NCBI GenBank assembly: GCA_002688965.1
Contig: NZEE01000007.1
Location: 31,058-37,433 of the forward strand
Length of the DNA stretch: 6,376 nt
Direction of reading: 5' to 3'
Source of the DNA: an archaeon
Lineage (GTDB): Archaea; Aenigmatarchaeota; Aenigmatarchaeia; GW2011-AR5; GCA-2688965
In this document: piece after piece, positions 120-6,376 of the stretch
How positions within the stretch are numbered: the first letter of the stretch is position 1
Layout of the letters: each line of letters opens with the position of its first letter
Notes under the pieces: generated by a model
The model's input: the letters and a program-made list of their open reading frames with translations, nothing else
The model's database searches: none
Told to the model about the DNA's origin: nothing
Program-made: the position numbers and the translations under genes

Positions 120-695
120 TTATTTTTTTCCGTAAATAAACCAATAAACAACGCCTTTCTTACGTTCTTTTTCAATTTTAACTTTCATGCCAATTGATTC
201 AAACAACTCTCTTATATTTTCTTCCTTTTTCAGATGAGCACGTGCTGGCATTCCTAAACTAGTTCCAAATGACATAAAGGAAAAAGTTCCACCTTTTTTC
301 AAAAACGATAAAAGTTGCTTAATATCTTTTTCTGGTTCAGGAAAATGTTCCATTACACCTACACATGTAATTACATCAAAAGAACGACCAAAAGGAGCAA
401 GCTCATTTTCCTTAATAAATATCACATTTGAATAATCTAAAGCTTTTCCTATTTTTTTTACAGCCCGTTCTAATTGTTTTTGACTTAAATCAACTGCAAC
501 AACAGTTCCATCAGTCTTAACTTTTTTAGCAACAGCTAAAGTTGTTATACCAGTTCCACATCCAAAGTCTAATACCGTATGTTTTTTTTTCAATTTAGCA
601 TTTTTTATTATTTTTTCAACATCTTTTTCTGTGTACCATAATGAAAAGGTTTTGCTCCAGAACCATGAAAATTTATCAAAGAATTTCTCTGTAAA
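120..695. repeat. Methyltransferase-domain direct repeat, copy A
   Basis: This segment encodes the methyltransferase domain plus stop codon and matches 2015-2590 without gaps at protein level (143 of 191 residues identical). At DNA level it holds long identical runs: 244-302 matches 2139-2197 with one mismatch in 59 bases, 455-494 matches 2350-2389 exactly, and 670-695 matches 2565-2590 exactly. Similarity falls off sharply past 695, where the permease coding region begins. Confidence 0.85.
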
Positions 696-2018
696 TCTTC
701 CATCTGTTTCTAATTTAATCACAACGTACATAGGTATACCTAGGAAAATCAAGGAGATTCCTATAGAAAATATTGCTAAAGAATTTTGTACTTCAATTAA
801 CCAATAACCGAGTAAAGCTACATTAAATATTACTATTAGAATAGGACCTACTCGACCAAAAGGAGCTTTGAAATGTCTCTTTAGGTTTGGTTTTGATATT
901 CTTAATTTTACAACAGATAGCAAGACACCTGAATACAGAATTAATATGAGCGGAAGGAGAAGTGACAATAATATCATGAAGTCAGCAAAGCCTATGAAAG
1001 TTACAGCGCATGTAATTACTGTCTGGAATAATATTGCGATGTATGGTGTGCCATATTTTTTATGAATTTTTCCAAACTTTGGTAAGAGAACTTTATCTCT
1101 TGACATTGCATAGAGAAGTCTAGGTGATGATACAATCCAAGTAGCTGCTGTTCCTATTAATGGAATAAATATTAACAATGCAAATATTTTAGAGAATTCT
1201 GTACCAAACAGCATTGATGAAACAAACACTAATGGAGCACTTTGTCCAGCTAACGCCTCCCAACCACCAACCCCTATGGATACTACAACAGTCAAAACAG
1301 CTAATATTCCTACAATAATTGTAGCTATTACAAGAGTTTTTGGAAGTACCTTTCTTACATTTTTTATTTCTTCTGATAAATATGTAGCTGTCTCCCATCC
1401 AAAAAAGGTTTCCGAAATAAAATATATAGCCAAAAAAACAGCTGGAAATGAAAATACAAATAAAGAGTCAAATGCTCCAGGATTTATTTGTGGGATACCA
1501 GGTATTATTAACATTAGTAAAGTAGCTACAGTCATTAATCCAAAAAATAAAAGTAATCTAGAAGATATATTCATACCTCTATAACTAATGTAATTAAACA
1601 GAACTATTATGGAAACAGAAAAAATTGCATTAAATAATAGAGTTTCATTTGGAAAAAGATACATAATTGAACCAACAACAAGCATTGCAATTGTTATATT
1701 TGCAACTATCCATGCAATCCATCCAAAAATAAATGAGTAAAATTCGCCAAATGCTTTTTTAATAAATTCATACACACCACCTGCTTTAGGAAATAATGAA
1801 ACAAGTTCTGCAAAATATAATGATATAACAATTGCAATGAATGACATTATTATCCATGAAAGAAGTGATGATGCACCTGCATGGATAGCACCTATAGCTG
1901 GCAAGAAAAATATACCTGTTCCTAAAATAGCATTTATCGTAATAAATAGTAACGTTTTCTTACCAATAGTTCTTCTTAAAGAACTTTTTTCTTTATCTTT
2001 TTTCATATAATCCCTCAT
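120..2018 (-). CDS. APC-superfamily permease fused to SAM-dependent methyltransferase (copy A, downstream gene)
   Basis: The 632-residue product has two parts. Residues 17-435 form an APC-superfamily transporter of about 12 helices. Helix 1 carries the glycine-rich unwound motif ILGTGIF (31-37), the region after helix 6 has GWETATYLSEEIKN (207-220), and the loop after helix 8 has PRLLYAMSRD (299-308), all hallmarks of amino-acid/polyamine permeases. Residues 442-632 are a class I methyltransferase of the UbiE/Methyltransf_11 type: SAM-binding motif I VLDFGCGTG (482-490), the acidic residue ending strand 2 (D510 in VVAVD), a standard post-motif loop GVMEHFPEPEK (554-564), and GGTFSF (576-581). 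APC termini are normally cytoplasmic, so the enzyme would face SAM. Both substrates are unknown. The start overlaps the upstream stop (ATGA), pointing to translational coupling; a second in-frame ATG at 2006, behind GAGGGA, would give 628 residues and is equally plausible. A paralogue lies directly upstream. Fold assignment is firm; any function beyond that is inference. Confidence 0.9.
   Translation of the reverse strand: MRDYMKKDKEKSSLRRTIGKKTLLFITINAILGTGIFFLPAIGAIHAGASSLLSWIIMSFIAIVISLYFAELVSLFPKAGGVYEFIKKAFGEFYSFIFGWIAWIVANITIAMLVVGSIMYLFPNETLLFNAIFSVSIIVLFNYISYRGMNISSRLLLFFGLMTVATLLMLIIPGIPQINPGAFDSLFVFSFPAVFLAIYFISETFFGWETATYLSEEIKNVRKVLPKTLVIATIIVGILAVLTVVVSIGVGGWEALAGQSAPLVFVSSMLFGTEFSKIFALLIFIPLIGTAATWIVSSPRLLYAMSRDKVLLPKFGKIHKKYGTPYIAILFQTVITCAVTFIGFADFMILLSLLLPLILILYSGVLLSVVKLRISKPNLKRHFKAPFGRVGPILIVIFNVALLGYWLIEVQNSLAIFSIGISLIFLGIPMYVVIKLETDGRFTEKFFDKFSWFWSKTFSLWYTEKDVEKIIKNAKLKKKHTVLDFGCGTGITTLAVAKKVKTDGTVVAVDLSQKQLERAVKKIGKALDYSNVIFIKENELAPFGRSFDVITCVGVMEHFPEPEKDIKQLLSFLKKGGTFSFMSFGTSLGMPARAHLKKEENIRELFESIGMKVKIEKERKKGVVYWFIYGKK
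2011..2016 (-). promoter_or_regulatory. Possible Shine-Dalgarno site for copy A (alternative start at 2006)
   Basis: The minus strand reads GAGGGA, then four bases, then an in-frame ATG at 2006. The site lies at the overlap of the upstream stop with the first ATG at 2018. It resembles the archaeal GGAGGTGAT consensus with one base missing, so ribosomes finishing the upstream gene could restart at either ATG. Confidence 0.4.
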
Positions 2019-2590
2019 TTTTTTCCATAAATAAACCAGTAAACAGCACCTTTCTTATGCACTCGGTCAATTTTAACTTTAATTCCAATTGATTTGAACA
2101 ATTCCTTTATACTTTCTTCAGATTTCAAATATGAAGGAGCTGGCATTCCTAAACTAGTTCCAAATGACATAAAGGAAAATGTTCCACCTTTTTTCAATAA
2201 TGAAAACATTTTTTTCAAAGTATTTTTAGGAGTACTAATATATCCCAATACACCCGCACATGTTATTGAATCAAATACTTTTCCAAATGGAGCAAGCTCA
2301 CGTTCTTTGATAAATATAACATTTGAATAGTCAAGAGCCTTTTCAATTCTTTTTACAGCCCGTTCTAATTGTTTTTGACTTAAATCAACAGCAACAACAG
2401 TTCCCTCTCTTCTAACTTTCTTAGCTACTGCTAATGTAGTATTTCCAGTACCACATCCAAAGTCAAGTACAGTATAGCCTTTTTTCAGTTTAGAGTTCTT
2501 AATAACTTTCTCAACATCTTTTTTAGTGTACCAAAAAGTAAATGTCTTATTGAAAATCCATGAGAATTTATCAAAGAATTTCTCTGTAAA
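2015..2590. repeat. Methyltransferase-domain direct repeat, copy B
   Basis: Partner of 120-695. Its upper limit at 2590 is the first base of the codon for F449, the exact equivalent of F442 in the other gene, and the last 26 bases (2565-2590) are identical in both. An internal island (2195-2248, residues 563-580) is strongly divergent although its flanks are nearly identical. Confidence 0.85.
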
Positions 2591-3934
2591 AGATTTACTT
2601 GTATATAATTTTACAAGGATGTATAGCGGTATGCCTAATACAATTAAACTAGCTGCTTTGAGAATAAGATCAGGTTGTTCTACTGTTAAGAAAGAACCAA
2701 TCACAAACACATATACTGCCGATACTGCAGGTATTACAAATTTCAGAGGAGCTCGATAATACGCTTTCTTTCTCGAATGTTTTTGTCTTATCTGCAATAG
2801 AGATAGATAAACAAGGAAGTATATGAATAAAGTAACTGGCATTGTAGTTAGTAATAGAATTTCAAACCCACTTCCTAATAAAAATTCTGCAACAAAAACT
2901 ATTATCGACGTAATAACAAACTGAACTATTAGAGAGTTTACAGGCGCACCGTTTTTATTTAATTTCAAAAATATATCTGGTAAAGTTTTATCTTTAGCCA
3001 TTCCATATGGTAAACGAGCAGCAGTTGTTATCCAACTATTCAAAGCACTGAAAATAATTACTATCGCAGATAATGATAACAATAATCCACCATTATCATA
3101 CAGATGTTCCATTAATCCTGCAAATGGAGCTTCTGTTGCTGCAAATTCTGTTAAACCACCAGGAAGAATATGGACAGCGCCTATAGTTGTAATTGTAACA
3201 GCAAGATAAATGACCGAAACTATAATTGTTCCATATATAATAGCTTTTGGTACAATTTTTCGACTATTTTTAACTTCTTCTGAAACAAAAGTTGCTTCTT
3301 GCCAACCTATGTAAGGCTGTATAATAATTGCTGCAGCAAGTAGAACTGTTCCTATAGTGAATGATTTTATATCAAAAACAGTTGCTGTCGAAAAGTCAAA
3401 GAAAAACGATAATGCGATTGTAATAATAATCAAAGCTACAATTGCGAAACTTGTAAGAATAATTTGTGTCCTAGCACTACTTTTTATTCCATGTAAATTA
3501 ATTAAAGTAAAAAATCCAATAACCATTACTGCTGTAAAAACTTTTCCCAATGGATCTAAAGGGTATATAGCTGAAATATAAGCTATTCCTCCCATTGCAA
3601 GCATTCCAGCATATGTCCAAGAAACAACCCAAGCACTCCATCCAGATAAAAATCCTACATGTTCACCAAATGCATCCCTTACATACTTGTAAATACCGCC
3701 AGAATCTTCATACATTGATGTTAATTCAGCAAAAATAGTTGACATTGCTATAGCAATGATACTTGTGAATATCCATATCCATAAAGATGCATAACCAAGA
3801 ATTCCTGCTGCTAAAGCAGGTATGATAAAGATTCCAGAACCAACAATAGCACCTACGCATAAGAACGTTACATCTAGTAAACCTAATGTTTTTTTCAAAT
3901 CCTTACTCTTATTACTAGCTTTGCCTTTTACCAT
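2015..3934 (-). CDS. APC-superfamily permease fused to SAM-dependent methyltransferase (copy B, upstream gene)
   Basis: The 639-residue product has the same two-part design as its downstream neighbour. The permease part (about 15-442, about 12 helices) shows GAIVGSGIF (28-36) in helix 1, GWQEATFVSEEVKN (210-223) after helix 6 and ARLPYGMAKD (306-315) after helix 8, placing it in the APC superfamily. Residues 449-639 are the methyltransferase: VLDFGCGTG (489-497), D517 ending strand 2, and GGTFSF (583-588). The loop after strand 4 is unusual: where copy A has MEHFPEPEK this protein has LGYISTPKN (563-571), so the usual E-H pair is lost and activity or substrate may differ. The permease half differs substantially from copy A, consistent with a different transported substrate. 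The ATG at 3934 is well supported by a TATA-like box centred 26 nt upstream (leaderless). It is the first gene of a probable two-gene unit; its stop overlaps the next start by 4 nt. Confidence 0.9.
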   Translation of the reverse strand: MVKGKASNKSKDLKKTLGLLDVTFLCVGAIVGSGIFIIPALAAGILGYASLWIWIFTSIIAIAMSTIFAELTSMYEDSGGIYKYVRDAFGEHVGFLSGWSAWVVSWTYAGMLAMGGIAYISAIYPLDPLGKVFTAVMVIGFFTLINLHGIKSSARTQIILTSFAIVALIIITIALSFFFDFSTATVFDIKSFTIGTVLLAAAIIIQPYIGWQEATFVSEEVKNSRKIVPKAIIYGTIIVSVIYLAVTITTIGAVHILPGGLTEFAATEAPFAGLMEHLYDNGGLLLSLSAIVIIFSALNSWITTAARLPYGMAKDKTLPDIFLKLNKNGAPVNSLIVQFVITSIIVFVAEFLLGSGFEILLLTTMPVTLFIYFLVYLSLLQIRQKHSRKKAYYRAPLKFVIPAVSAVYVFVIGSFLTVEQPDLILKAASLIVLGIPLYILVKLYTSKSFTEKFFDKFSWIFNKTFTFWYTKKDVEKVIKNSKLKKGYTVLDFGCGTGNTTLAVAKKVRREGTVVAVDLSQKQLERAVKRIEKALDYSNVIFIKERELAPFGKVFDSITCAGVLGYISTPKNTLKKMFSLLKKGGTFSFMSFGTSLGMPAPSYLKSEESIKELFKSIGIKVKIDRVHKKGAVYWFIYGKK

Positions 3935-3976: not shown

Positions 3977-4891
3977 TTAAATCTTAAGTTGCATAAAGTC
4001 TTTTGCTAAAATAACTGAAGGATATTTTTCAACCATCTCTTTCAACTTTCTTATATCACTATACCTTCGACTGATATGTGTAAGGGCAAGTTGTTTGACA
4101 CCAGCTTCCTTAGCTATTTTCAAAACATCTTTGAAAGTTGTATGTTTGCGTTTAAAATCCTCAAAATAAGTTGAATCATGTATAAGCAAGTCAGCATTTT
4201 TAGATAAATTTATTATATTCTGAGATGGACGAGTGTCACCACTATACACAACCTTCTTCCCTTCTTCAACCAAAGAAATATCCTCTAGTTTTACCACCTT
4301 ATCTTTGAAAATTACTTTTCCATTGGCTTTCAATTTATGATAAATTGGCCCTTTATCTGGCAATCCTAAAGCTTTAGCTTTATCTTTGTCAATATTTACG
4401 CGATTTTTTTCAATAAAACCATATCCAACTGCAGGTATACCATGATCAACAGGAATACCAACTATCTGATATTCTTCTTCGTCTATTAGAACTTGCGGTT
4501 TAGTTCCAATATGTTCAACATTAATTGGAATAATATTGAAAGGTTTGCTAGAATATCCAAAAGAATCAATTAATGAAACAAATTCTTCAGCTTCAGGAGC
4601 AAATATCCTCAAATCACGTTTGCGTCCTTCCAAAGACAATGTTTCTAATAATCCAAATAAGCCTGCAAAATGATCAGCATGCCAGTGAGTAATAAAAATA
4701 TCATTAATTCTCATAAAATTTACACTTGGATCACCTAAGATAGTGATTTGTCTTTGAGTTCCCTCACCACAATCAAATAAATAAACATGTTCTTGTTCAC
4801 TCTGATATCTAAGAAAAATAGCAGGATGATTCCTATATTTAGTTGGTATTGACGCTGTTGTACCTAGAAATGTTACTTCAATATGTGTCAT
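3977..4891 (-). CDS. rnz: Ribonuclease Z, tRNA 3'-end endonuclease
   Basis: A 304-residue metallo-beta-lactamase-fold protein that cuts the 3' trailer from precursor tRNAs in the cytoplasm. The two-zinc site is complete: HWHADH (69-74), H150 in VDHGIP, D219 in SGDTR, and H272 in THISRRY; HDS at 238-240 and the histidine of KRKHTTF (H250) also fit the family. The segment GLPDKGPIYHKLKANG (176-191) corresponds to the short-form RNase Z region GxPxGPxxxxLK. Length matches the short (ELAC1/bacterial-archaeal) form. An in-frame ATG lies five codons upstream at 4906, but the perfect archaeal Shine-Dalgarno GGTGAT lies between the two, 3 nt before the ATG at 4891, and the beta-strand start (MTHIEVTFLGT) fits family N-termini, so 4891 is chosen. 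The gene begins 45 nt after the small membrane-protein gene and is probably cotranscribed with it. Confidence 0.95.
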   Translation of the reverse strand: MTHIEVTFLGTTASIPTKYRNHPAIFLRYQSEQEHVYLFDCGEGTQRQITILGDPSVNFMRINDIFITHWHADHFAGLFGLLETLSLEGRKRDLRIFAPEAEEFVSLIDSFGYSSKPFNIIPINVEHIGTKPQVLIDEEEYQIVGIPVDHGIPAVGYGFIEKNRVNIDKDKAKALGLPDKGPIYHKLKANGKVIFKDKVVKLEDISLVEEGKKVVYSGDTRPSQNIINLSKNADLLIHDSTYFEDFKRKHTTFKDVLKIAKEAGVKQLALTHISRRYSDIRKLKEMVEKYPSVILAKDFMQLKI

Positions 4892-4894
4892 GAC

Positions 4895-4900
4895 ATCACC
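4895..4900 (-). promoter_or_regulatory. Shine-Dalgarno site deciding the rnz start
   Basis: The minus strand reads AAGGTGATGTC just before the ATG at 4891. GGTGAT is complementary to the archaeal 16S rRNA 3' end. It lies inside the longer reading frame that begins at 4906, which argues that the upstream ATG is not the main start. Use of a Shine-Dalgarno here, unlike the leaderless genes nearby, agrees with rnz being internal to an operon. Confidence 0.7.
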
Positions 4901-4936
4901 TTCCATATTTCAGGAAGCAAGAGCCTGTAACGATTT

Positions 4937-5143
4937 TCATCGTTTTATTCGCTTTTCTCTATTTTCAATTAATAGCAAAACCAAACCAATTGATAATGCT
5001 GCTAATCCAACATAAGTATAAATTTGAAATATAAAACATGCAAGCGCCATTCCAAATACTAATCCTGTTGTAAGTAGCAATACTTTATCTTCATCATGTG
5101 GACTAAGATTTAGTAAACCTTTTTTTTTCTTAACCATAAACAT
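4937..5143 (-). CDS. Small two-helix membrane protein of unknown function
   Basis: A 68-residue protein that I do not recognise. It has a basic N-terminus (KKKK at 5-8), a short polar stretch (SPHDEDK, 14-20), two hydrophobic helices (about 21-42 and 44-59) joined by a very tight turn near TY (43-44), and a charged tail (ENREKRIKR). This predicts a helical hairpin with both ends in the cytoplasm by the positive-inside rule. Two starts are possible: ATG at 5143 and ATG at 5137 (66 residues, MVKKKK). The TATA-like box centred at about 5162 lies 26 nt before 5137, so the inner ATG may be the leaderless start. The gene is followed by rnz after 45 nt on the same strand, with no promoter evident between them. 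The reading is supported by the promoter, the membrane pattern and the absence of a competing frame, but without a known homologue. Confidence 0.65.
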   Translation of the reverse strand: MFMVKKKKGLLNLSPHDEDKVLLLTTGLVFGMALACFIFQIYTYVGLAALSIGLVLLLIENREKRIKR

Positions 5144-5235: not shown

Positions 5236-6376
5236 ATGATTAGCCAAGATAACGCTAGATACTTAGTGGTGTTAGTATTTGCAATAGTATTTGCAGCAAC
5301 AATTGGTGTTATAGGACAATCACCTACAGGAAATATTATTGGTATACTTCCACCAACTCCAGATGATGCAACAATAACAACAAACCTTTCAACAGAAATA
5401 AAAGTAAATTTAACTGAGTTCAACTTAACAAATATGACATACACTTGGAACACTACAAGTTATGCAATTTATAATAACTCGCTTGTTCTTATGTTAAATT
5501 TTGATAATGTTTCTAGTTTAGGAGAAAATCAAACAATCGTTACTGACGTAAGTAAGTATGGAAATAATGGAACTATTGTTGGAGCAGTTTGGAATTCTAG
5601 TGGAAAGTATGGTGGTGGGTTTGAATTTGATGGTGTTTCCGGTTCAATTGATTTAGGGAAGCCAGCTAGCTTAAACATAAGTGGGAATATAACAATATCC
5701 GCATGGATAAAAATGAGAACACCTTCAAATATTCTGCCAAGGATTGTAGATAGTTGGGATACAGATGGTGATGATCAAGGATTCATACTACACATAGTTG
5801 ATGCGGGTGATTTAGCTAAATTTTCTGTGGGCAGTGGTTCAGCTATATCTGCTTTTGCTATACCTCAGGAGCAGTGGGTCCATTTAGTAGGAAACTGGAA
5901 TGGTTCTCATATAAATTTATATGTCAACGGTTCATTAGTAAATTCTACAAGTTATGCAGGACAAATGGGCATTTCTAAAAGAAACGTTGTGATTGGAAAT
6001 ATTGATATAGGTACAAGAGAATTCAACGGTACAATCGATGAAGTAAGAATTTGGAACATAAGCTTAACTGCAGATCAAATACGTCAGCAATATATGACTA
6101 ATCTAAATAAATATGGTACAGATGATTGGTTACTATATGTAAATCAAACAGTAGCCGAACCATATAAGAATTATACTTTTCCTTACCAAGCATGTGCTTT
6201 TGATAATTTGGGAAATGAAAATTGTACCGGATCTAGAGAAATAACAATACTGGGTGTAGCGCCACCAATTACTTATAACAATCCAACACCCGCTAACCAA
6301 ACTATAACAACTAACACTTCTTTCATAGTAAATGTTTCTATTAATGAATCATCTTTAGGACAAGTCAAATATATTT
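5236..6376 (+). CDS. Secreted or anchored LamG-domain surface glycoprotein, N-terminal part (runs off window)
   Basis: An open frame of 380 codons continues past the right edge. The ATG at 5236 is the first in frame after a TGA at 5227. Residues 8-27 are a hydrophobic signal or anchor segment (RYLVVLVFAIVFAATIGVIG). Residues 50-82 are threonine- and asparagine-rich (TYTWNTTSYAIYNNS). Residues 83-286 match a concanavalin A-like LamG_3 domain: LVLMLNFDN, DVSKYGNNGTIVGA, FEFDGVSGSIDLG, ISAWIKM, WVHLVGNWNG, INLYVNGSLV, and the closing FNGTIDEVRIWN. Residues 290-340, with cysteines at 320 and 330, look like the end of an Ig-like module; PTPANQTITTN (350-360) starts another. I count 24 N-X-S/T sequons, which fits a heavily N-glycosylated extracellular protein. 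LamG domains bind carbohydrate or protein ligands; the target here is unknown. It is transcribed divergently from the small membrane-protein gene. Confidence 0.9.
   Translation, partial: MISQDNARYLVVLVFAIVFAATIGVIGQSPTGNIIGILPPTPDDATITTNLSTEIKVNLTEFNLTNMTYTWNTTSYAIYNNSLVLMLNFDNVSSLGENQTIVTDVSKYGNNGTIVGAVWNSSGKYGGGFEFDGVSGSIDLGKPASLNISGNITISAWIKMRTPSNILPRIVDSWDTDGDDQGFILHIVDAGDLAKFSVGSGSAISAFAIPQEQWVHLVGNWNGSHINLYVNGSLVNSTSYAGQMGISKRNVVIGNIDIGTREFNGTIDEVRIWNISLTADQIRQQYMTNLNKYGTDDWLLYVNQTVAEPYKNYTFPYQACAFDNLGNENCTGSREITILGVAPPITYNNPTPANQTITTNTSFIVNVSINESSLGQVKYI

What the first reader, a model, noticed from the sequence alone, without database searches (positions are those of the whole stretch)
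120..3934. Two tandem APC permeases, each fused to a complete SAM-dependent methyltransferase
Each gene has full permease motifs followed within a few residues of the last helix by a full class I methyltransferase (motif I VLDFGCGTG, acidic strand-2 end, GGTFSF). APC transporters with C-terminal stress-protein-like domains are known to me; a methyltransferase fusion is not. Two copies in tandem make an assembly or frameshift artefact unlikely. Inference: transport coupled to methylation on the inner face, so the imported amino acid, amine or similar compound is methylated and trapped (vectorial methylation), or the permease part senses or anchors an enzyme acting on membrane targets.
Basis: partly seen in the sequence, partly recalled or inferred. 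Interest (0 to 1): 0.85.

Follow-up and report, generated by a model that had tools for sequence, protein, structure and literature searches.

The report
Amino-acid permeases fused to methyltransferase domains
Many small-genome archaea carry amino-acid transporters joined at a fixed distance to a methyltransferase-like domain, an old fusion that may let the cell's methyl-donor state control uptake rather than methylate the cargo.

Summary
In detail: two tandem genes (A 2015-3934, B 120-2018, both minus) each encode an APC permease followed by a class I methyltransferase (MT) fold with intact SAM motifs. It is no artefact: 77 of 80 best related loci carry the fusion (71 of 80 labelled DPANN), and by hand count 93 of 279 and 30 of 145 genomes of two DPANN phyla have it. 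Fused permeases lie on one side of a branch against 47 unfused relatives. Records name them as ordinary permeases; I found no paper on the fusion.

In the window the permease halves are 31% identical, the MT halves 73%, and the two domains give conflicting trees: one MT module replaced its neighbour's. Permease-to-MT spacing is nearly invariant. The SAM motif changed state at least 10 times in the family (6 times by loss of a glycine), and one member lacks the SAM-binding half. Sister permeases in the same phylum carry CBS domains instead. This favours a docked sensing or gating domain over cargo methylation. Against it: most members keep the SAM site, and one genome has the MT alone. Nothing biochemical could be tested.

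One related branch adds an N-terminal KvAP-like voltage sensor.

The parts
2015..3934 (-). Gene A: APC permease + methyltransferase-fold fusion, 639 aa
   Evidence: ORF; Pfam; model (mean pLDDT 88.9, pTM 0.86)
120..2018 (-). Gene B: second APC permease + methyltransferase-fold fusion, 632 aa (probable start at 2006, 628 aa)
   Evidence: ORF; Pfam; one search shows GAGGGA before the second ATG; P0008 is 628 aa
2600..3934 (-). Permease part of A (residues 1-445)
   Evidence: AA_permease_2; Foldseek best matches BasC 9h76 and 6f2g, then SLC7A10 8wnt
2015..2599 (-). MT-fold part of A (residues 446-639)
705..2018 (-). Permease part of B (residues 1-438)
   Evidence: 31% identical to A's permease part
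120..704 (-). MT-fold part of B (residues 439-632)
   Evidence: 73% identical to A's MT part
2444..2470 (-). SAM motif I VLDFGCGTG of A
   Evidence: sequence
549..575 (-). SAM motif I VLDFGCGTG of B
   Evidence: sequence
2350..2389 (-). 40-nt run of A's MT part identical to B's
2139..2179 (-). 41-nt run of A's MT part identical to B's
2004..2018 (-). A/B junction: ATGA stop-start overlap, GAGGGA, second ATG of B

Best explanation
These are members of a DPANN family, probably of single origin, of amino-acid permeases (LAT/BasC/AdiC-like fold) whose C-terminus runs, with almost no change in length, into a class I methyltransferase-fold domain; by the usual APC topology (recalled) that end is cytoplasmic. 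Shown by sequence and trees: the fusion, its spread, a tree consistent with one origin, the fixed spacing, replacement of the MT module between tandem permeases, and repeated alteration of the SAM motif. Inferred: the permease imports or exchanges an amino acid or related amine, and the MT-fold domain works chiefly as a docked SAM- or SAH-responsive regulator that couples uptake to the cell's methyl-donor state. Where the SAM site is broken the domain would remain as a gating or assembly part. In the window both SAM motifs are intact, so SAM binding, and possibly methylation, is expected.
For: 33 fused permeases lie on one side of a branch (SH-aLRT 98) against 47 unfused ones. P436 to G493 spacing is 57 in 88 of 103 sequences and 55-59 in all; F613 to K639 is 26 in 94 of 103. 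pTM 0.86 for a 445+194-residue chain is more than I would expect with undefined domain orientation (inference, no PAE). The MT of A and B form one clade (100/99) while their permeases do not (AU p 1.9e-5), and the A-type grouping of the MT is rejected (AU p 0.0028): one module serves two unlike permeases. SAM-motif state needs 10 changes on the permease tree of 113 rows, loss of a motif glycine 6. In altered non-voltage-sensor members motif I and strand 2 are looser (entropy ratio 1.29, 1.33) while the strand 5-helix E loop, helix E and strands 6/7 are not (0.81, 0.86, 0.78). L114 keeps the permease and only the C-terminal half of the MT (profile positions 75-158 of 165). Five of five examined ~600-aa permeases of the Aenigmatarchaeota phylum carry paired CBS domains in the same place; that CBS pairs bind adenosine ligands, SAM included, is recalled. 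29 of 39 genomes behind the related loci encode a SAM synthetase. Foldseek also lists KimA and NKCC/NCC, APC-fold transporters with C-terminal cytosolic domains.
Against: 74 of 95 non-voltage-sensor members, including every complete member of the two Aenigmatarchaeal clades that hold A and B, keep the SAM motif, as an enzyme would; of the 21 others, 16 differ by one acidic residue only and may still bind SAM. Even in altered members motif I columns vary no more (1.53 bits) than the loop (1.67). One free-standing MT of the family with an intact motif exists (L109, 42% identical to the MT of L049), so the domain can persist without a permease. No ligand, transport or gating data; the interface rests on one model without PAE or coordinates.
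Confidence: 0.45

Rival explanations
1. Vectorial methylation: the MT domain methylates the imported amino acid or amine as it leaves the permease, trapping it.
For: Intact SAM motifs in both window genes; the MT fold matches small-molecule MTs such as 3dh0, UbiG and phosphoethanolamine MTs among many others; the near-fixed spacing would suit hand-over.
Against: The same MT module was exchanged between permeases only 31% identical; the SAM motif is altered repeatedly and half the domain is missing in L114; no shared pathway gene seen among the neighbours (ORFs within four places).
Confidence: 0.18
2. Membrane-anchored methyltransferase: the permease positions an MT that acts on another target (lipid, protein, small molecule) near the membrane.
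For: One shared MT on two permeases fits one common target; a free-standing family MT with an intact motif exists in G159.
Against: The permease is fully constrained: TM6 and TM1 columns (1.06 and 1.22 bits) are as conserved as SAM motif I (1.19) in intact members, more than an anchor needs; SAM motif altered in 39 of 113.
Confidence: 0.2
3. Structural domain only: the MT fold is a folding, stability or oligomerisation module, SAM binding being incidental.
For: Regions away from the SAM site stay constrained when it is altered; L114 keeps only the C-terminal half; all 18 voltage-sensor variants fail the motif test.
Against: SAM motif kept in 74 of 95 non-voltage-sensor members over deep divergence, which a purely structural role would not preserve.
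Confidence: 0.15

Closest known systems
LAT/SLC7 and bacterial APC transporters (BasC, AdiC, GkApcT)
   Different: The matched chains cover the permease only; none is listed with an MT domain
APC permeases with C-terminal CBS pairs (L115-L119)
   Same: APC permease plus C-terminal soluble domain, in the same phylum
   Different: CBS domains, and permeases that score far lower with the fused family's profile (E about 1e-55 to 1e-62 over the permease part)
KimA (K+ transporter, c-di-AMP bound) and SLC12 NKCC/NCC transporters
   Same: APC-fold transporter plus C-terminal cytosolic domain; Foldseek ranks 20 and 32 (KimA) and 26-50 (NKCC/NCC). That KimA's UspA-type domain controls transport is recalled, not read here
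   Different: No UspA hit in the window proteins; good superposition covers the permease only, rmsd 12-16 when both domains are forced
APC permease + UspA fusions
   Same: C-terminal soluble domain on an APC permease; example P0107, 780 aa, with PF00582
   Different: UspA, not MT fold
Class I small-molecule methyltransferases (3dh0, UbiG, UbiE, ArsM, PMT)
   Same: Fold, motif I, acidic strand-2 end
   Different: Free-standing soluble enzymes; the only close free-standing relative I met is L109, while a protein search with the MT part gave one weak hit
SLC9C1, voltage-gated Na+/H+ exchanger
   Same: Transporter carrying a voltage-sensor domain, as in the related 18-member branch outside the window
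   Different: Another transporter family; the abstract of PMC10620092 (start of abstract seen in a search listing) calls it the only known transporter regulated by voltage-sensing domains

Membership tests
APC superfamily amino-acid permease (PF13520) | Pfam score over gathering cut-off across the transporter core | tested here: met
   186.2 and 167.7 bits, cut-off 27
APC superfamily amino-acid permease (PF13520) | APC fold | tested here: met
   model of A; B was not modelled
APC superfamily amino-acid permease (PF13520) | Transports amino acids | not testable with these tools
   needs a transport assay
NCBIfam TIGR00905 / TIGR00909 transporter subfamilies | Score over curated cut-off | tested here: not met
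   A 176.3 and 168.9 bits, B 98.8 and 185.8 bits, cut-offs 409.05 and 556.8
Class I SAM-dependent methyltransferase | Fold, motif I, acidic end of strand 2 | tested here: met
   for A and B; fold of A's domain
Class I SAM-dependent methyltransferase | Methyl transfer activity | not testable with these tools
   acceptor unknown
KimA-type ligand-regulated APC transporter | C-terminal UspA domain | tested here: not met
   PF00582 not among the hits
KimA-type ligand-regulated APC transporter | C-terminal ligand binding controls transport | not testable with these tools
   works-like proposal only
Group translocation / vectorial methylation | Cargo chemically modified during uptake | not testable with these tools
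   module exchange and SAM-motif alteration argue against

The most novel reading that the evidence does not exclude
DPANN archaea evolved a class of sensor-gated amino-acid permeases: the docked MT-fold domain reads SAM/SAH to set uptake, and one branch added a KvAP-like voltage sensor, giving a voltage-gated secondary transporter of a fold not known to have one.
Probability: 0.25. Interest if true: 0.88.

Novelty: new variant of a known kind. Interest (0 to 1): 0.64.

Why it matters
A transporter fused to an enzyme-like domain and kept across DPANN lineages with small genomes (assemblies of carriers mostly 0.4-2.1 Mb) points to a control point in how these archaea take up nutrients. It offers a testable link between methyl-donor status and amino-acid uptake, a natural series from intact SAM site to broken and half-deleted domain, and, in a side branch, a candidate voltage-gated amino-acid permease.

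Tried and rejected
SAM auxotrophy / SAM importer: archaeal SAM synthetase PF01941 is in only 2 of 39 genomes behind the related loci, which looked striking, but bacterial-type MetK (PF02773) is in 27 of 39; 10 of 39 show neither. Across 279 genomes one or the other is in 75 of 93 fusion-positive and 88 of 186 fusion-negative genomes, so the fusion does not go with lack of a synthetase. Rejected as a general explanation.

Assembly or frameshift artefact, and a fusion unique to this window: rejected.

My own first statement that no close free-standing MT exists was wrong: on recheck, G159 holds one (L109:2539-3126, 195 aa, no permease match in that 5-kb stretch). Three other lone MT matches looked at (G085, G052, G088:C15) end at contig ends. 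G161's match is a divergent fusion (L113). The odds of the main reading were left at 0.45 because L109 speaks against it and L114 and the CBS permeases, found in the same recheck, for it; two rivals moved by 0.02.

Patchy recent gene conversion: synonymous codons are identical at 97 of 138 sites against 71.8 expected, but clustering of identical codons is not significant (p 0.30), and the MT tree does not settle gene-wise or species-wise grouping (AU p 0.10-0.49). Module replacement is shown, continuing conversion is not.

Neighbourhood: RNase Z and, by eye only, S7, EF-2, IF1A, Dph2-like and aminoacyl-tRNA synthetase genes; no pathway clue. Viral contigs: no confirmed relative. Defence reading: the PADLOC mad2 hit covers only the generic MT part.

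Literature: the listings showed no paper describing the fusion; for PMC11237513 (archaeal fusion survey) I saw passages only, with 'permease' occurring 0 times in the main text; supplements were not read. Only an open-licence library was searched.

Limits: one search kept 80 of 416 relatives, so members outside DPANN are not excluded. L066 (labelled LCP-89 bacterium) may be misbinned; L071 (labelled Methanosarcinales) lies in G038, which one search lists in the phylum of G018. L067 lacks an MT, L080 is cut at the locus end, and L057 could not be judged because part of it is masked. A second frame in L067's 3.8-Mb bin (G036) matches nearly the whole model, but the bin may be mixed.

Rows left out or repeated: one search judged 102 of 103 rows; those rows include near-copies (for example P0008 = B, P0004 and L003). 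Trees left out P0001 and P0008; one search left out frames cut by contig ends, among them L014, an Aenigmatarchaeal frame that reads as altered; one search left out P0015, P0016, L010, L012 and L020. The 33 fused and 47 unfused rows were picked by me. Genomes with the fusion were counted by hand at best E below 1e-130 (93 of 279) and 1e-110 (30 of 145); a few are cut at contig ends, and at least G088 and G161 lie below the line, so the counts are rough.
Full report
Observation. The window holds two tandem minus-strand genes, A (2015-3934, 639 aa) and B (120-2018, 632 aa), that each encode an APC permease followed by a class I methyltransferase (MT) fold. AA_permease_2, Methyltransf_31 and Methyltransf_25 score above their curated cut-offs in both. 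The A stop and the first ATG of B overlap as ATGA; a second ATG behind GAGGGA makes a 628-aa B likely. Upstream on the same strand is an RNase Z gene (3977-4906). RNase Z-like neighbours, recognised by eye, stand within four ORFs of the fusion in 10 of the 80 related loci: seven are labelled Aenigmatarchaeota, and the genomes of the other three (G005, G008, G012) are listed in the phylum of G004, an Aenigmatarchaeota-labelled genome. So the window most likely comes from that phylum. No genome is held for it.

Spread. A protein search with A scored 7998 candidates and gave 237 hits, of which the top 17 clusters are 606-642 aa fusions; the two with organism names are Aenigmarchaeota / Aenigmatarchaeota. 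A genome-contig scan found 416 relatives and kept 80; by label 71 are DPANN lineages, 7 plain 'archaeon', one LCP-89 bacterium and one Methanosarcinales. 77 of the 80 loci hold at least one frame with both profiles, 85 fused frames among 92 permease frames; the other three are L057 (partly masked), L067 (coiled-coil tail instead) and L080 (cut at the locus end). By hand count, 93 of 279 genomes of the phylum of G018 and 30 of 145 of the phylum of G004 have the family at E below 1e-130 and 1e-110. A woesearchaeal member as query gave 1004 protein clusters, unfused permeases included; the best 120 all bear both kinds of Pfam domain, and where named are called amino acid permease, transporter or antiporter, with one 'hypothetical protein' that UniRef calls a methyltransferase. 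Viral contigs gave no confirmed relative.

Free-standing and shortened forms. A protein search with the MT part alone gave one weak hit (E 2.8e-5, 33% identity; 119 candidates). On recheck, one genome (G159) holds a free-standing MT of this family: L109:2539-3126, 195 aa, SAM motif intact, 42% identical to the MT of L049, with no permease match in that 5-kb stretch and a ribosomal S7-like gene (by eye) nearby, as beside several fused genes. Conversely L114 (G088) is a 581-aa fusion in which only the C-terminal half of the MT profile (positions 75-158 of 165) is found, and L113 (G161) is a very divergent fusion.

Origin. In a tree of permease parts, 33 fused proteins lie on one side of a branch (SH-aLRT 98) against 47 unfused relatives (short search, some long branches, rows picked by me). 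One old fusion is the simplest reading.

Module exchange in the window. The permease parts of A and B are 31% identical, the MT parts 73%. The DNA similarity begins at the domain joint (79% over 574 nt) and includes runs of 41 and 40 identical nucleotides. In the permease tree A-type proteins group with P0004-P0006 (100/100), whereas in the MT tree the six A and B domains form one clade (100/99). Forcing the six together in the permease tree is rejected (AU p 1.9e-5), and so is forcing the A-type grouping in the MT tree (p 0.0028). So the MT module of one gene replaced that of its neighbour; whether conversion continues is not settled. Four other tandems (L018, L028, L031, L047) show a milder form (permease 36-39%, MT 43-49%) and L078 hardly any (30%, 34%), while pairs of an ordinary and a voltage-sensor form show the reverse (permease 56-57%, MT 21%).

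SAM site. Of 102 fused MT domains judged, 77 keep the SAM motifs I tested and 25 do not. In the set of 113 the figures are 74 and 39, with 10 changes of state as the minimum on a quick permease tree. The alteration is often mild: of the 21 altered members without a voltage sensor, 12 lack only the strand-2 acid, 4 only the first acid of motif I, and 5 a motif glycine; glycine loss alone needs 6 changes. All 18 voltage-sensor variants fail the glycine test, but seven keep the strand-2 acid. In altered members without a voltage sensor the SAM motifs are looser than in intact ones (mean entropy ratio 1.29 and 1.33), while the N-cap (0.81), motif IV (0.77), the loop after strand 5 (0.81), helix E (0.86) and the last two strands (0.78) are not; strand 5 is 1.04 and permease segments 0.91-0.96. 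The sets differ in size and kinship, so only the contrast counts; in absolute terms motif I still varies no more (1.53 bits) than the loop (1.67). I take this, with L114, to mean that the domain has a role apart from SAM binding, most simply contact with the permease.

Parallel. Frames of about 600 aa in the phylum of G004 matched the family profile only over the permease. I examined five (L115-L119): each is an APC permease with a C-terminal CBS pair. CBS pairs are known to bind adenosine ligands (recalled). So APC permeases of the same phylum carry a regulatory-type domain at the place where the MT sits here.

SAM supply. I tested whether the fusion goes with lack of SAM synthetase. PF01941 is in 2 and PF02773 in 27 of 39 genomes behind the related loci. 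In 279 genomes one or the other is in 75 of 93 fusion-positive and 88 of 186 fusion-negative genomes; at 1 Mb or more 59 of 71 and 51 of 80, and at 1.3 Mb or more there is no clear difference (35 of 40, 20 of 25). The SAM-importer idea fails as a general explanation.

Mechanism. A module shared by two unlike permeases, altered or halved in some lineages and matched by CBS domains on sister permeases, is unlikely to exist only to methylate a specific cargo. A docked SAM- or SAH-reading regulatory domain fits best, at about 0.45. Against it stand the many members with intact SAM motifs and the free-standing L109. In the window, methylation is not excluded.

Side finding. Eighteen related proteins (731-793 aa; three in Woesearchaeota-labelled loci, fifteen in genomes reached by handle) carry an N-terminal domain of up to about 150 residues in front of the permease (the called frames of L093 and L094 lack its first part). 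A profile of 16 matches the KvAP voltage sensor (1ors, E 1.9e-5), and 6 of 16 match Ion_trans (best 9.4e-7; L047 is below the curated cut-off). The S4-like stretch has repeated arginines. The branch needs one gain on the tree. The start of an abstract (PMC10620092, search listing) calls SLC9C1 the only known transporter regulated by voltage-sensing domains.

Known or new. The parts are known families, and APC permeases with UspA (P0107) or CBS tails exist. I found no paper on the MT fusion in the searches named. I rate it a new variant of a known kind.

Noticed in passing
L017:5928-8255, L031:6094-8427, L047:9919-12252, L091-L105: Triple fusion: KvAP-like voltage-sensor domain + APC permease + MT fold with altered SAM motif, 18 proteins. 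In L017, L031 and L047 it lies directly downstream of an ordinary fused permease.
   Followed up: partly
L115-L119: APC permeases with a C-terminal CBS pair in genomes of the Aenigmatarchaeota phylum, 5 of 5 frames examined.
   Followed up: partly
L109:2539-3126 (+): Free-standing MT of the fused family, no permease match in the 5-kb stretch; a possible fission or permease loss.
   Followed up: partly
L114:971-2716 (-): Fused permease keeping only the C-terminal half of the MT domain.
   Followed up: partly
window 5236-6375 (+): Start of a protein with a Laminin_G_3 (concanavalin-like) domain (E 6.5e-29), open at the window end; possibly a cell-surface adhesin.
   Followed up: no
window 4937-5143 (-): Small 68-aa hydrophobic protein without a Pfam hit between RNase Z and the lectin-domain gene.
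   Followed up: no
L018:3256-5358, L028:2881-4959, L031:9473-11518, L047:13303-15432: A further fused subtype of 681-709 aa with an N-terminal extension, near ordinary fused permeases; extension not identified.
   Followed up: no
L067:7776-10016: Undinarchaeal-labelled relative with a coiled-coil-like tail in place of the MT domain.
   Followed up: no
G001-G039: These genomes mostly carry bacterial-type MetK rather than archaeal SAM synthetase (27 against 2 of 39).
   Followed up: partly
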